From assembly GCA_937773775.1 (NCBI GenBank), contig CALJVL010000008.1:62001-126000 (forward strand): a stretch of 64,000 nucleotides of DNA, given 5' to 3'. Positions 48,383 to 64,000 of the stretch are shown here, one piece after another. A program made the position numbers and the translations under genes. Within the stretch, counting starts at the first letter, position 1. Each line of letters starts with the position of its first letter. This stretch comes from an uncultured Flavobacterium sp. (GTDB lineage Bacteria; Bacteroidota; Bacteroidia; Flavobacteriales; Flavobacteriaceae). Under the pieces are notes generated by a model. It was not told where the DNA came from. It saw only the letters and a program-made list of their open reading frames with translations, and searched no databases.

Positions 48383-48497
48383 GGGGCGTGACCCGCAAAA
48401 AAAAGCGGGTCGGGCTATCCGCTACAATCTTTTTAATTATTTCGCTATCGCTGCATAATCGAAAAGGATTTTCGCTACTATCCCTCACGCGCTCCCC
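48383..48497. repeat. Structured intergenic element (terminal inverted repeats, internal hairpins), putative dispersed repeat
   Basis: Starts GGGGCGTGACCCGC, ends TCACGCGCTCCCC; internal GACCCGC/GCGGGTC hairpin and imperfect ATCTTTTTAATTAT/ATAATCGAAAAGGAT stem. Confidence 0.55.
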
Positions 48498-48512
48498 AAA
48501 AACTAATAAGTA

Positions 48513-55109: not shown

Positions 55110-57050
55110 GTGATGAAAAAATTATTTAAAAACATATTCAAAAAACAGCACGATCCACTGCCTCCCGAAGAGAGAATGAAGCTGATTGAGAACTCATCAA
55201 AATTAGTTGGACCCGGTGTGTTTTATTCCACGTTAATTGTGATCGCTTCCTTTTTGCCTGTTTTTTTATTGACGGGAATGGAAGGAAAGTTATTCAGTCC
55301 GCTGGCCTGGACAAAGTCATTTATATTAATCGTAGATGCTTTTTTAGCCATAACACTTACTCCAGTTCTAATTAGCTTTTTGCTGAAAGGAAAACTTCGT
55401 CCCGAAAGTAAGAATCCAATTAACAGAAAACTGGAAAGTATCTATACGCCTATTTTGACTTTTTGTCTCAAATGGAGAAAATCAGTATTGGCGGTAAATA
55501 TCGTTGCTTTATTAATAGGTGGTTTGATGTTTACCCGACTGGGATCCGAATTTATGCCGCCTTTAGATGAAGGTAGTATTTTATTTATGCCTGTAACCTT
55601 GCCCGATGTTTCTAATGGAGAGGTAAAACGAATATTGCAGGTTCAGGACAAATTGATAAAATCGATTCCGGAGGTTACCCATGTTTTGGGAAAAGCGGGT
55701 AGAGCTAATACCGCAACAGACAACAGTCCGATTAGCATGATCGAGACCATAATTTTGCTGAAGCCACAGAATGAATGGAGAAAAGGAATAACGAAAAGCG
55801 ATATCATTACCGAAATAAATAATAAGTTACAAATTCCTGGAGTGACGAATGGTTTCACGCAGCCGATCATTAATCGAATTAATATGCTTTCTACGGGTAT
55901 CAGAACCGATGTGGGAATAAAAATATATGGTGCCAGTTTAGACACCATAGATGTTCTATCCCAAAAAATTAAAAAAGCATTGGAAGGTACCGAGGGAGTA
56001 AAAGATTTATTTGCGGAACCAATAACTGGAGGCAAATATATTGATATTGTCGCCAAGCGAGAAGTGATAGGCAGGTATGGTCTTAGCGTTGATGATGTTA
56101 ATAGTGTTGTAGAAGCCGCCATTGGCGGGATGACATTAACGACAACTATCGAGGGAAGAGAGCGGTTTTCAGTCAATGCAAGATATGCGCAAGAATATAG
56201 AAACAGTCTTGAATCCCTAAAAAAACTTCAGGTTCAGACAATGGAATACGGACCTATTCCATTGGAGGCTGTTGCGGATATAAAAATAAGTGATGGGCCT
56301 CCGATGATTAATAGCGAAAATGCCATGCTTCGTGGGAGCGTTTTGTTTAATGTTCGTGGTCGGGACTTAGGGAGTACCGTGAAGGAAGCCCAGGACAAGC
56401 TAAATGCAATGATTACTAAAATGCCAAAAGGCTATTATATGCAATGGAGCGGACAATGGGAAAACCAAATTCGGGCTAACAAAACATTAAGCCTGATTTT
56501 ACCTCTGGTTGTCATCATTATATTCTTGATTTTATACTTTACCTATCGCTCCATGAAGGAGGCGTTCATCACGATGATTACTGTGCCATTTGCTTTAATT
56601 GGAGGGATTTTCATGGTTTACTTTTATGACATTAATCTATCGGTGGCGGTCGCTGTTGGTTTCATCGCTTTGTTTGGCCTGGCTATTGAAACTGCGATGT
56701 TGATTACGATTTATTTAAATGAAGCCATGGTCAAAATGGTGGAAAAACATGGAAACAGTAGGGAGACACTTACGGAAGACATATTACGGGACTATATTAT
56801 TTTTGGCTCTGCAAAAAGATTGCGTCCTAAGTTAATGACGGTATCGGTCGCTTTGTTTGGGTTAATCCCCATTTTATGGTCAACAGGAACTGGGGCTGAT
56901 GTAATGATTCCTATTACGGTCCCACTTATTGGAGGGACAATCACCTCAACTATTTATGTATTATTAGTAACGCCAGTTGTTTTTGAAATGACAAAATTAC
57001 GCGAATTAAGAACAAAAGGTAAAATAGATATTATCGATGCGAAACATTAA
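55110..57050 (+). CDS. cusA: CusA-family heavy-metal RND transporter, C-terminal part (same frame as upstream ORF)
   Basis: Starts in the TM4-TM5 loop; NRINMLSTGIRTDVGIKIYG; GPPMINSENAM; TM5-TM12 region. Confidence 0.9.
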   Translation: MMKKLFKNIFKKQHDPLPPEERMKLIENSSKLVGPGVFYSTLIVIASFLPVFLLTGMEGKLFSPLAWTKSFILIVDAFLAITLTPVLISFLLKGKLRPESKNPINRKLESIYTPILTFCLKWRKSVLAVNIVALLIGGLMFTRLGSEFMPPLDEGSILFMPVTLPDVSNGEVKRILQVQDKLIKSIPEVTHVLGKAGRANTATDNSPISMIETIILLKPQNEWRKGITKSDIITEINNKLQIPGVTNGFTQPIINRINMLSTGIRTDVGIKIYGASLDTIDVLSQKIKKALEGTEGVKDLFAEPITGGKYIDIVAKREVIGRYGLSVDDVNSVVEAAIGGMTLTTTIEGRERFSVNARYAQEYRNSLESLKKLQVQTMEYGPIPLEAVADIKISDGPPMINSENAMLRGSVLFNVRGRDLGSTVKEAQDKLNAMITKMPKGYYMQWSGQWENQIRANKTLSLILPLVVIIIFLILYFTYRSMKEAFITMITVPFALIGGIFMVYFYDINLSVAVAVGFIALFGLAIETAMLITIYLNEAMVKMVEKHGNSRETLTEDILRDYIIFGSAKRLRPKLMTVSVALFGLIPILWSTGTGADVMIPITVPLIGGTITSTIYVLLVTPVVFEMTKLRELRTKGKIDIIDAKH

Positions 57051-58290
57051 AAAGTATATCATTATAGGTTGTTTGATTTTTGGCTTTGCTAATGTAAATG
57101 GGCAAACACTTTCTTTGGATGCCGTTTTGAGCAGCATTAAAACCAATAACCCACAGTTGAAAATGTATGATGCCGACATTCAAAGTATGAATGCAGCTGC
57201 CAAAGGAGCAAAAACCTGGATGCCACCGCAAATTAACACTGGTTTGTTTATGGCGCCTTACGACGTAAAAATGTGGAATGCGAACGAAATGAATCAAGGG
57301 ATGGGGGCTTATATGCTAGGCTTTACGCAAATGATTCCCAATGCTGCTAAACTGAAGGCCGATTCTGATTATATGAATGCCATGTCTTCAGTAGAAGCCG
57401 AAAACAAAAGTTACACCGTCAATCAGTTGAATGCCGTGGCAAAGGCAAACTATTACCAATGGATAGTATTGGATAAAAAAATAAAAATTGCTAATGACAA
57501 TTTGTTGCTTTTGGAGTATATGATAAAGAGTATGGAAATACGCTATCAGTACAACATGGATAAACTGCCAACGTATTATAAGGCGAAATCGCAATACAGT
57601 GGATTGCAAAGCATGTTGGTCATGATGCAAAACAGTGTATCCCAAAAAAGAATTGGGCTGAACACCTTAATGGCAAGGGATAAAAACACGGTCTTCGAAA
57701 TCGATCCGACCTATACATTAAACGAATATGATGTAATGGAATCAGACAGTACTTCGCTTTCTCAAAACCGGAGCGATGTGCAAGCGATCGAAAGAACAAT
57801 AGAATTGAATCAGTTGAAAATTATAATTGAAAAATCGAAATTGTTGCCGGAGTTTGGCGTGAAATACGATCATATGTTTGCTTTTGGCGACCGTCCGCAG
57901 CAATTTTCATTGATGGGTATGGTGAGCATTCCGATGCCTTGGTCCACAAAAATGAATAAAGCGACGATCAATAGTATCAAGATAAAAAACGAAAGTTTGG
58001 AATGGCAAAAACAAATGATTCTAAATGAGGCATCGGGTATGATTTTAGGGATGCAAACCGAATTTAAAAATCTTAAAAGGCAGTATGATATTGTTGAAAA
58101 AAGTATTATTCCAGCATTGCGAAGAAATTATGACACAGCAATTCTTGCATGGCAAAACAACACGGGTGATTTGTTTGTCGTGTTGGATTCATGGGAAGCA
58201 TTAAACATGGCTCATATCGACAAATTGGATAAACTTCAGGCTATTTTGAGTACTCAGGTAGAAATCGAAAAACAACTCGAAACGAAATAA
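57037..58290 (+). CDS. TolC-family outer membrane factor (CusC-like)
   Basis: Signal peptide; OEP-type coiled coil; overlaps cusA C-part stop. Confidence 0.88.
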   Translation: MRNIKKYIIIGCLIFGFANVNGQTLSLDAVLSSIKTNNPQLKMYDADIQSMNAAAKGAKTWMPPQINTGLFMAPYDVKMWNANEMNQGMGAYMLGFTQMIPNAAKLKADSDYMNAMSSVEAENKSYTVNQLNAVAKANYYQWIVLDKKIKIANDNLLLLEYMIKSMEIRYQYNMDKLPTYYKAKSQYSGLQSMLVMMQNSVSQKRIGLNTLMARDKNTVFEIDPTYTLNEYDVMESDSTSLSQNRSDVQAIERTIELNQLKIIIEKSKLLPEFGVKYDHMFAFGDRPQQFSLMGMVSIPMPWSTKMNKATINSIKIKNESLEWQKQMILNEASGMILGMQTEFKNLKRQYDIVEKSIIPALRRNYDTAILAWQNNTGDLFVVLDSWEALNMAHIDKLDKLQAILSTQVEIEKQLETK

Positions 58291-58292
58291 TT

Positions 58293-59540
58293 ATGAATAA
58301 ATTTTTAAAATATAGTTTGTTGGCTATCGCGGTTCTGACTGTTGGATTCACCATTTATTATTTTGTGGAAAAATCAAATAATCAAACTGCGCATTTACGC
58401 AAGGAGGAGATTTACACATGTCCTATGCATCCTCAAATCATAAGAAACGAGCTGGGGAATTGCCCCATTTGTGGAATGAATTTGGTGAAAAAAGTGAGCG
58501 AAAAACAGCCTGAGGAAAGTCATTCGATAGAACATTTATTGCGACCGACAGATCTATTTGTGGTGGGGGATTTTTTAACGACGACACCTAAAGACACGAC
58601 GATAAGCAGCGAGATACATTTACCGGGACTTGTTGCCTACGATCCTAATTCGTCGGTAAACATAGCTGCAAGAATCGGTGGTAGGATAGAAAAAATGTAT
58701 GTGAATTACAAGTTTCAAAAAGTGAATAAAGGCCAAAAATTATTTGATTTGTACAGCCCAGAATTACTGACAGAGCAGCAAAATTATATTTATTTGATAT
58801 CCAATGACCCAGAAAATGCTTCAATCATAGAAGCATCAAAACAAAAATTATTGCTTTACGGAATGAGCGCCCAGCAAATTAATTCATTGGCTGCAGCGAA
58901 AAGAGTAAATCCGGTAGTGACCATTTACAGTCCAAGTAGCGGGATTGTAGAAGGAACGGAAAGCATGGACAAAAGCACAATAGGGAATATGCAAAGCGCC
59001 GAGACAACAACGACTTCTTTGTCTTTAAAGGAGGGAGATTATATCAAGAAAAACGAAGTTGTTTTTACATTGGTGAATACGGATAAAGTTTGGGGTGTCT
59101 TTAATGTTATACAAGGCTACAACAGTCTGGTAAAAGTCAATCAGCCAATCAGAATTTCATCCGAGTTAGACGAAAAGGATTATTTCAATGCGAAAGTGAA
59201 CTTTGTCGAGACACAACTCAACCAAAACGAAAAAACCAATCGAGTGAGGGTGTATCTCAATAATAAAAATTTAAAACTTCCCGTCGGTTTGAGACTGCAG
59301 GGAATTATAGAAACAAATCCAATAAAAGGAATTTGGCTGAGAAAACAGGCTTTGGTAAGCATAGGAAACAAAAAGATAGTTTTTGTCAAGAAAGAGAATG
59401 GTTTTAAAACGGCAGTGATAAGAACAGGAATCGAAATCAATGACTTTGTTCAAGTTATCGAAGGGGTCTCTAGCGGGGATAGCCTTGCCAGAAATGCGCA
59501 GTATTTGATCGATAGCGGAAGCTTTATAAAAACGGAATAA
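58293..59540 (+). CDS. CusB-like RND periplasmic adaptor with CPMHPQ metal-binding domain
   Basis: YTCPMHPQIIRNELGNCPICGMNLVKK; adaptor core. Confidence 0.9.
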   Translation: MNKFLKYSLLAIAVLTVGFTIYYFVEKSNNQTAHLRKEEIYTCPMHPQIIRNELGNCPICGMNLVKKVSEKQPEESHSIEHLLRPTDLFVVGDFLTTTPKDTTISSEIHLPGLVAYDPNSSVNIAARIGGRIEKMYVNYKFQKVNKGQKLFDLYSPELLTEQQNYIYLISNDPENASIIEASKQKLLLYGMSAQQINSLAAAKRVNPVVTIYSPSSGIVEGTESMDKSTIGNMQSAETTTTSLSLKEGDYIKKNEVVFTLVNTDKVWGVFNVIQGYNSLVKVNQPIRISSELDEKDYFNAKVNFVETQLNQNEKTNRVRVYLNNKNLKLPVGLRLQGIIETNPIKGIWLRKQALVSIGNKKIVFVKKENGFKTAVIRTGIEINDFVQVIEGVSSGDSLARNAQYLIDSGSFIKTE

Positions 59541-59542
59541 TT

Positions 59543-60757
59543 ATGAAAAATATAAAAAAAATTAGTTTTCTATTTATAGTATTCGTCGTGCTTGCTGCCT
59601 GCAACGGCAAAAACAAGGAAGAACGTAGTGCACTTCAGGCGGAAGAAAATATTTATTATACCTGTTCGATGGATACCCAAGTTAAGGAGGACAAACCGGG
59701 GAAATGCCCTATTTGTCACATGGACCTAACACCAATGAAGAAGGACAATTCCGCTTCTAATGAGATTGCGCTAAGTGACCAACAGATAAAACTGGGTAAT
59801 ATCAGTGTAATGACGATTTCTGAATCGGAAAATAGTCTGGTAGAAAATTACAATGGGGTTTTGACGATTGATCCGCAGGGAATGAAAACCATTTCTGCTA
59901 GGGTTATGGGGCGAATCGAGAAATTATACTTTAAAACTGAGGGGGATTACATCCAAAAAAACCAGGCTGTTTACCAGATCTACAGTGAAGATATTGCTAT
60001 AGCTAAACAAGATTATTTCACGGCATATAAACAGTTGTCCATGCCTGGCGATTTTGGTAAAAATGCAAAAAGCATGTTGAATGCGGCCAAGCAAAAGCTA
60101 CTGTTCTTTGGCTTGTCAAGTAGCCAAATCGAAAGTATTAAAACGAGTTCCCAAATTTCGCCCTACACTACTTTTTATAGTACCCATAGCGGTTATGTTT
60201 CGGAAATTACGGTAACAGAAGGTAGTTATGTTATGGAGGGCGCTGCCATAATTAAAGTAGCTAATTTAAATAGTCTCTGGCTTGAAACACAAGTAAACGT
60301 GAACTATGTTAAAAGTCTAAAAATAGGACAGTTGGCAAAGCTGTCTTTTGCGGATTATCCGAATAAAGAAATTAACGCAAAAATATCGTTCATCAATCCA
60401 GAGATAAATCCGGATTCCAGATTGCTATTAATCAGAATGGAAGTGCCCAATCCAAATTTACTTTTAAAACCTGGCATGCAGGCAGTAGCCAGACTAACGC
60501 AATCCAATCTAAAAGGAATGTTTATTCCTATCGATGCGGTAATCAGGGAAGAAAATGCCACCTATATCTGGGTCGAAAAAAGCCATGGTATTTTTGAAAA
60601 TGTAATGGTCGAAACTGGAGCGGAGTCGGAAGGAATGATTGAAATTAAATCAGCTTTAGATCCAACCAAAAAAGTGGTGATTACTGGAGCTTATGCTATC
60701 AACAGCGAGTATAAATTTCGCAAAGGGAGTGATCCCATGGCAGGAATGGACATGTAA
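59543..60757 (+). CDS. CusB-like RND periplasmic adaptor lipoprotein with metal-binding domain
   Basis: Lipobox VVLAACNG; YTCSMDTQVKEDKPGKCPICHMDLTPM; ISARVMGRIEKLYFKTEGDYIQKNQ. Confidence 0.9.
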   Translation: MKNIKKISFLFIVFVVLAACNGKNKEERSALQAEENIYYTCSMDTQVKEDKPGKCPICHMDLTPMKKDNSASNEIALSDQQIKLGNISVMTISESENSLVENYNGVLTIDPQGMKTISARVMGRIEKLYFKTEGDYIQKNQAVYQIYSEDIAIAKQDYFTAYKQLSMPGDFGKNAKSMLNAAKQKLLFFGLSSSQIESIKTSSQISPYTTFYSTHSGYVSEITVTEGSYVMEGAAIIKVANLNSLWLETQVNVNYVKSLKIGQLAKLSFADYPNKEINAKISFINPEINPDSRLLLIRMEVPNPNLLLKPGMQAVARLTQSNLKGMFIPIDAVIREENATYIWVEKSHGIFENVMVETGAESEGMIEIKSALDPTKKVVITGAYAINSEYKFRKGSDPMAGMDM

Positions 60758-63032: not shown

Positions 63033-63594
63033 ATGAAGTTACACATAAAAAATATGGTTTGCGGTCGTTGCGAAGCAGGCCGTGAAAGCAGAATTGGAAA
63101 AAATGGAGCTCCCCGTCATTTCCATAAGATTAGGGGAGATAGAACTATCTCGAGAACTAACGGAAGAGGAAATAGAAAGCTTGGCAAATAATTTAAAAAA
63201 TCTTGGTTTTGAATTGTTGCAAGATGAAACAAGCAAGACGATTGAGCAGATTAAAAATTTTATTGTTGATTTGGTTCATCATCGAAGCGAAAATATAAAA
63301 ATTAATTTATCTACTTATTTATCAGAAGAATTGGGGCAAGATTATAGCACTTTGAGTAGGTTATTTTCAGATATTGAGGGCAGCACTATCGAACATTATT
63401 TTATCGCTCATAAAATCGAAAAAGCGAAAGAATTATTGGTTTACGATGAATTTACTTTAAGCGAAATTGCATTTCAACTCAACTATAGTAGTGCAGCCCA
63501 TTTGAGTAATCAGTTTAAAAAAGTGACCGGTTTCACACCTACGCATTTCAGAAAATTGGAAGACAATAGCAGAAAGCAAATTGACAGTTTATAA
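63033..63594 (+). pseudogene. AraC-family regulator with N-terminal HMA-like CxxC region, interrupted by +1 frameshift near 63072
   Basis: ATG frame gives MKLHIKNMVCGRC then shifts; the frame from GTG 63082 gives KAELEKMELPVISIRLGEIEL...AraC HTH (TLSEIAFQLNYSSAAHLSNQFKKVTGFTPTHFRK). GTG-started 63082-63594 ORF could also be expressed alone. Confidence 0.65.
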
Positions 63595-63680: not shown

Positions 63681-63905
63681 ATGATACATACCTATATTGT
63701 TGGTGGAATGTCCTGCGACGGTTGTCGAACTAAGGTCGAAAAAACACTGAATGAAATCGATGGTGTAGAAGCGATCGTTAGTTTAGAACCAGCAATTGTA
63801 ACTATAACAATGGAAAAGCATGTTCCAACTGTGAAACTACAGGAAGCATTAGCAGCTGCAGGAAAATATACCATAGAGATGAGCCACCCTAAAAGAGTCA
63901 TCTAA
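63681..63905 (+). CDS. HMA-domain metallochaperone-like ORF / N-terminus of a frameshifted copper P-type ATPase
   Basis: MIHTYIVGGMSCDGCRTKVEKTLNEIDGVEAIVSLEPAIVTITMEKH. Confidence 0.85.
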   Translation: MIHTYIVGGMSCDGCRTKVEKTLNEIDGVEAIVSLEPAIVTITMEKHVPTVKLQEALAAAGKYTIEMSHPKRVI

Positions 63906-64000
63906 CAAACCGAATGAAGAAGCTGAGGTAAAAGCCTGTTGCGGCGATGACAAGCATCAGCATGCTAAGAGTAAAACAGAGGAGAAGCCCAACACTCCTG

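What the first reader, a model, noticed from the sequence alone, without database searches (positions are those of the whole stretch)
63681..64000. HMA ORF ends just before an apparent P1B-ATPase continuation in another frame: copA-like recoding or frameshift mutation
Seen: the 74-aa HMA ORF reads ...SHPKRVI-stop at 63903-63905. Dropping one A from AAAA (63891-63894) gives ...SHPK-ESSNKPNEEAEVKACCGDDKHQHAKSKTEEKPNTP..., open to the window end and Cys/His-rich. That downstream frame is closed upstream by TGA at 63880-63882 and has no ATG, GTG or TTG before position 64000, so no ordinary start is visible for it in the window. Established knowledge: E. coli copA uses programmed -1 frameshifting to make a short HMA chaperone, CopA(Z), and the full ATPase from one gene. 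Inference: this locus either has a recoding site of different geometry (+1 or -2 at CCU AAA AGA, or transcript slippage) or a 1-nt insertion has split the ATPase.
Basis: partly seen in the sequence, partly recalled or inferred. Interest (0 to 1): 0.7.

Follow-up and report, generated by a model that had tools for sequence, protein, structure and literature searches.

The report
Copper-pump gene split by spurious frameshifts
The window ends inside an ordinary copper-exporting pump gene of a Flavobacterium; the frame break near its start is one of seven single-base insertions in that gene (with others in neighbouring genes), a pattern that points to sequencing or assembly errors in that stretch rather than to a programmed frameshift.

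Summary
In detail: the 74-aa HMA ORF (63681-63905) stops just after an AAAA tract, and the Cys/His-rich continuation runs on in the +1-shifted frame. Past the window the contig continues as an ordinary HMA-HMBD-P1B ATPase (CopA), which relatives encode as one open gene (811-908 aa). It is not a recoding site. Frameshift-aware alignment to the 904-aa F. frigoris protein finds seven frame changes in this gene, all +1, no in-frame stops, all catalytic motifs present. The adjacent HMA-AraC regulator (~63078) and a gene beyond copA carry further +1 shifts, and a second patch with the same signature (nhaA plus a DUF389 gene, nine +1 shifts) lies on another contig. With the same method 152 control alignments (190.6 kb) gave zero shifts; this genome gave 19 of +1 and 3 of -1 in 128 kb. 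In 35 relatives the junction is uninterrupted with no conserved slippery heptamer. Best explanation: patches of single-base insertion errors in the assembly. Real recent decay is not formally excluded, as reads are unavailable. Programmed frameshifting would need seven sites in one gene and is very unlikely. Interest is low.

The parts
63681..63905 (+). 5' part of copA: N-terminal heavy-metal-associated (HMA) domain with the GMSCDGC metal site, read as a 74-aa ORF because of a frame break
   Evidence: Pfam HMA 4.7e-10; 77-79% identical to residues 1-71/72 of Flavobacterium CopA proteins in L003/L004
   Evidence: frameshift-aware alignment to L004 and L003 places it at 63888-63894; the corresponding codons are uninterrupted in 35 relatives
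63892..64000 (+). continuation of copA in the shifted frame (Cys/His-rich linker before the HMBD repeats); goes on beyond the window to window-equivalent 66414, with six more +1 changes near 64303, 64343, 64422, 64699-64711, 65423 and 66051
   Evidence: contig continuation L041; Pfam HMBD, E1-E2_ATPase and Hydrolase on successive fragments; alignment
63033..63594 (+). neighbouring regulator: N-terminal HMA-like segment plus AraC-type HTH, also split by one +1 change near 63078
   Evidence: alignment to the intact 186-aa orthologue in L003, 154 of 186 identical, one +1 shift; Pfam HTH_18 and HTH_AraC

Best explanation
The locus is an ordinary Flavobacterium copper-efflux gene, copA: one HMA domain, HMBD repeats and a P1B-type ATPase core in a single protein, next to an HMA-AraC regulator and a Cus-type efflux operon. 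In the cell it is most likely one intact gene whose product pumps Cu(I) out of the cytosol (function inferred from the family). The stop after the HMA domain, and the six later frame breaks, are extra single bases put into this stretch by an error-prone, under-corrected part of the assembly. Shown: the pattern of shifts, the intact relatives, and the second patch with the same pattern. Inferred: that the extra bases are absent from the organism's DNA.
For: Seven frame changes in this one gene, all +1, no in-frame stop, 754/904 residues identical to F. frigoris CopA. All seven lie in or beside runs of 3-7 equal bases. CPC, DKTGT, SGEP, SEHP, TGDN and GDGINDAP motifs are all present. Own-lineage changes in the core are mostly synonymous (90 syn, 29 nonsyn; the intact L003 lineage 88 and 30), so there is no sign of long decay. 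Adjacent genes carry the same kind of shift: AraC near 63078 and a minus-strand gene near L041:5999. A second patch on contig C10 has three +1 shifts in nhaA and six in a DUF389 gene. purT, at 93% identity, has one +1 shift beside a 9-base run. Control: 152 alignments, 190,644 nt of other Flavobacterium genomes (nearly all isolates), zero shifts and zero in-frame stops, against 19 of +1 and 3 of -1 in 121 genes, 128,016 nt here. Errors of long reads are predominantly short indels at homopolymers (PMC12007338).
Against: No reads, coverage or assembly method are available. The shifts are clustered, and no ortholog-aligned gene of the window upstream of the regulator (about 48 kb aligned) has a break, so the rest of the assembly is good; clustering could also fit real loss of one locus. 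Runs of 3 or more are common in AT-rich DNA, so the homopolymer link is weak on its own. The F. frigoris lineage has fewer nonsynonymous core changes (75 syn, 10 nonsyn) than this one.
Confidence: 0.88

Rival explanations
1. The insertions are real and copA is a recently inactivated pseudogene; the copper-efflux locus is being lost in this lineage, perhaps in a strain with weak mismatch repair.
For: Shifts are clustered in copA and its neighbours, and homopolymer slippage is a natural mutation too. The shifts in the sampled genes are not spread evenly over the genome.
Against: All copA-patch shifts are +1, with no nonsense substitution in copA and no large deletion, although natural decay gives mixed events. 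Synonymous changes dominate. An unrelated patch (nhaA, DUF389) shows the same +1-only signature.
Confidence: 0.09
2. Programmed frameshifting or transcript slippage at AAAA makes a short HMA copper chaperone and a full ATPase from one gene, as E. coli copA does with other geometry.
For: The break lies just after the HMA domain, where a CopZ-like product would end. E. [quoted passage not shown]
Against: The full ATPase would need seven efficient shifts in a row. The 35 relatives have no break at the junction and no slippery heptamer conserved there; heptamers occur in a minority, at varying positions.
Confidence: 0.02
3. The downstream frame is an unrelated gene with its own start beyond the window.
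For: No start codon in the frame before 64000.
Against: The frame continues the CopA homologues residue by residue from the junction; the first ATG lies inside an HMBD.
Confidence: 0.01

Closest known systems
Flavobacterium CopA-type P1B ATPase with N-terminal HMA and HMBD repeats (F. frigoris PS1, L004; Flavobacterium sp. RSP15, L003)
   Same: Same domain order and gene neighbourhood (Cus-type adaptor and HMA-AraC regulator upstream); 87% (L004) and 83% (L003) amino-acid identity in the ATPase core
   Different: The relatives' genes are open from end to end; this copy has seven +1 frame changes
E. coli copA / CopA(Z) programmed -1 frameshift (Meydan 2017; Drees 2017, cited in PMC7558416)
   Same: A short HMA-only product could in principle end near the same place
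   Different: E. coli uses -1 slippage to make the short form; here the long form would need a +1 shift, six further shifts follow, and no site is conserved
Gene-fragmenting indel errors in long-read assemblies (e.g. PMC12007338)
   Same: Single-base indels near short homopolymers that split otherwise conserved genes
   Different: Here they are concentrated in patches and nearly all are insertions; the sequencing method of this genome is unknown

Membership tests
P1B-type copper ATPase (CopA) | HMA and/or heavy-metal-binding domains, E1-E2 ATPase domain, HAD hydrolase domain | tested here: met
   Pfam HMA, HMBD, E1-E2_ATPase, Hydrolase on successive fragments; intact orthologue L004 above the cut-off of TIGR01511, copper-translocating P-type ATPase
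P1B-type copper ATPase (CopA) | CPC, DKTGT, TGE/SGEP, HP and GDGxNDAP motifs | tested here: met
   All found
P1B-type copper ATPase (CopA) | single uninterrupted reading frame | tested here: not met
   Seven +1 frame changes in the assembled sequence; attributed to error, so the encoded protein is filed as CopA but the assembled copy is not an intact gene
P1B-type copper ATPase (CopA) | Cu(I) transport | not testable with these tools
   Inferred from family only
Programmed ribosomal frameshift (copA(Z) type) | conserved slippery sequence at the end of the HMA domain | tested here: not met
   35 relatives, no X XXY YYZ heptamer conserved at the junction
Programmed ribosomal frameshift (copA(Z) type) | one frame change separates the two products | tested here: not met
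   Seven changes in the gene
Programmed ribosomal frameshift (copA(Z) type) | stimulatory pseudoknot; both products detected | not tested
   Not folded here; proteomics not available
Assembly or sequencing indel error | same signature in unrelated genes of the same assembly, absent in control genomes | tested here: met
   19 +1 and 3 -1 in 128 kb against 0 in 190.6 kb of controls
Assembly or sequencing indel error | extra bases not supported by accurate reads | not testable with these tools
   No reads available

The most novel reading that the evidence does not exclude
The extra bases are real and the strain still expresses CopA despite them, by slippage at homopolymers, with an HMA chaperone as the short product.
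Probability: 0.01. Interest if true: 0.85.

Novelty: not a real feature. Interest (0 to 1): 0.06.

Why it matters
It removes a false lead: the 74-aa HMA ORF would be annotated as a stand-alone CopZ chaperone, and the ATPase as missing or as a pseudogene. It also flags patches of this assembly where other apparent split genes should not be trusted.

Tried and rejected
Codon-usage frame HMM over 442 kb of the own genome: the first setting could not report direct switches, the second had poor specificity (many hits were ordinary adjacent genes) and missed most of the known copA breaks, so it was replaced by homologue-based frameshift-aware alignment. A split gene in L084 (~12.7-12.8 kb; mixed +1/-1 with two in-frame stops, 61% identity) does not share the signature; it may be real decay or alignment noise and was not counted as support. 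The -1-frame TAA that many relatives have at 'xxT AAA' near the junction follows from codon use and mostly has no slippery heptamer before it.

Full report
Observation. The sequence is as described: HMA ORF 63681-63905, AAAA at 63891-63894, stop TAA at 63903-63905, and a downstream frame that is open to the window end with no start codon.

Continuation. The window is bases 62001-126000 of a 179,592-base contig of a 3.44-Mb genome (91% complete, 4.4% contamination); the nearest relatives found are Flavobacterium. The next 14 kb of the contig were fetched (L041; L041 position + 62000 = window-equivalent position). The shifted frame continues as HMBD repeats, an E1-E2 ATPase domain and a HAD hydrolase domain, but spread over five separate ORFs. 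The first ATG in the shifted frame is inside the HMBD repeat.

Relatives. A scan of GTDB genomes found 38 loci encoding relatives of the HMA-plus-linker segment. In 35 of them (L003-L037, Flavobacterium and close kin) HMA and ATPase are one open frame of 811-908 aa; one of these (L005) runs off its contig end. A search of 388 scored genomes of the same genus found matches in 324; the nearest copies are 77-79% identical in DNA over the whole locus.

Frame changes. tblastn and a dynamic-programming alignment that allows frame changes give the same seven +1 changes against two independent reference proteins: near 63888-63894, 64303, 64343, 64422, 64699-64711, 65423 and 66051 in window-equivalent coordinates. 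There is no -1 change and no in-frame stop. The reference genes L003 and G136 show no shift against L004 with the same method. The upstream HMA-AraC regulator has one +1 change near 63078; a minus-strand gene has one near L041:5999.

Is it this genome or this gene? Orthologues from 1.2 Mb of a complete relative (G036) were aligned to about 440 kb of this genome. In 121 genes, 128,016 aligned nt, there are 19 +1 and 3 -1 changes. Seventeen of the +1 changes fall in two patches: copA and its neighbours (8), and nhaA with a DUF389 gene on contig C10 (9). The first copA change is not in this count because the G036 protein aligned only from residue 71 on. The same method on 152 control alignments (other Flavobacterium genomes, nearly all isolates; 190,644 nt) gave none. 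Within the window the only aligned genes with breaks are at its very end.

Decay or error? Own-lineage substitutions in the ATPase core are 90 synonymous and 29 nonsynonymous, like the intact L003 lineage (88 and 30), though F. frigoris has fewer nonsynonymous changes (75 and 10). All catalytic motifs are in place. This speaks against old decay but not against very recent decay. The +1-only signature, repeated in an unrelated patch, favours insertion errors.

Recoding. E. coli copA makes its chaperone with a slippery sequence, a pseudoknot and the nascent chain (PMC7558416). Across 35 relatives no slippery heptamer is conserved at this junction, and one recoding site would not restore the protein here, as six more changes follow.

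Verdict. An ordinary copA with spurious frame breaks; not a recoding site. The remaining uncertainty is whether the insertions are errors (most likely) or recent mutations, which only reads can settle.

Noticed in passing
L086:16312-18787 (contig C10): nhaA and an adjacent DUF389 gene carry nine +1 frame changes, the same signature as copA; apparent split genes here should not be trusted.
   Followed up: yes
L077 near 17481 (contig C8 ~177481): purT, 93% identical to the relative, has one +1 frame change beside a 9-base homopolymer.
   Followed up: partly
window 48404-48508, minus strand: Flavo-1 RNA (RF01705, 55.5 bits), a described RNA family.
   Followed up: no
window 57037-60757: Intact outer-membrane efflux protein and two CusB-like adaptors, a Cus-type copper/silver efflux operon upstream of the regulator and copA.
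   Followed up: partly
window 63033-63594: The AraC-type regulator begins with an HMA-like segment (MKLHIKNMVCGRCE), suggesting direct metal sensing; the fusion is intact in relatives L003 and L004.
   Followed up: partly
L041:4460-4996: 178-aa Met-rich lipoprotein-like ORF directly after copA without a Pfam match, perhaps a copper-binding protein.
   Followed up: no
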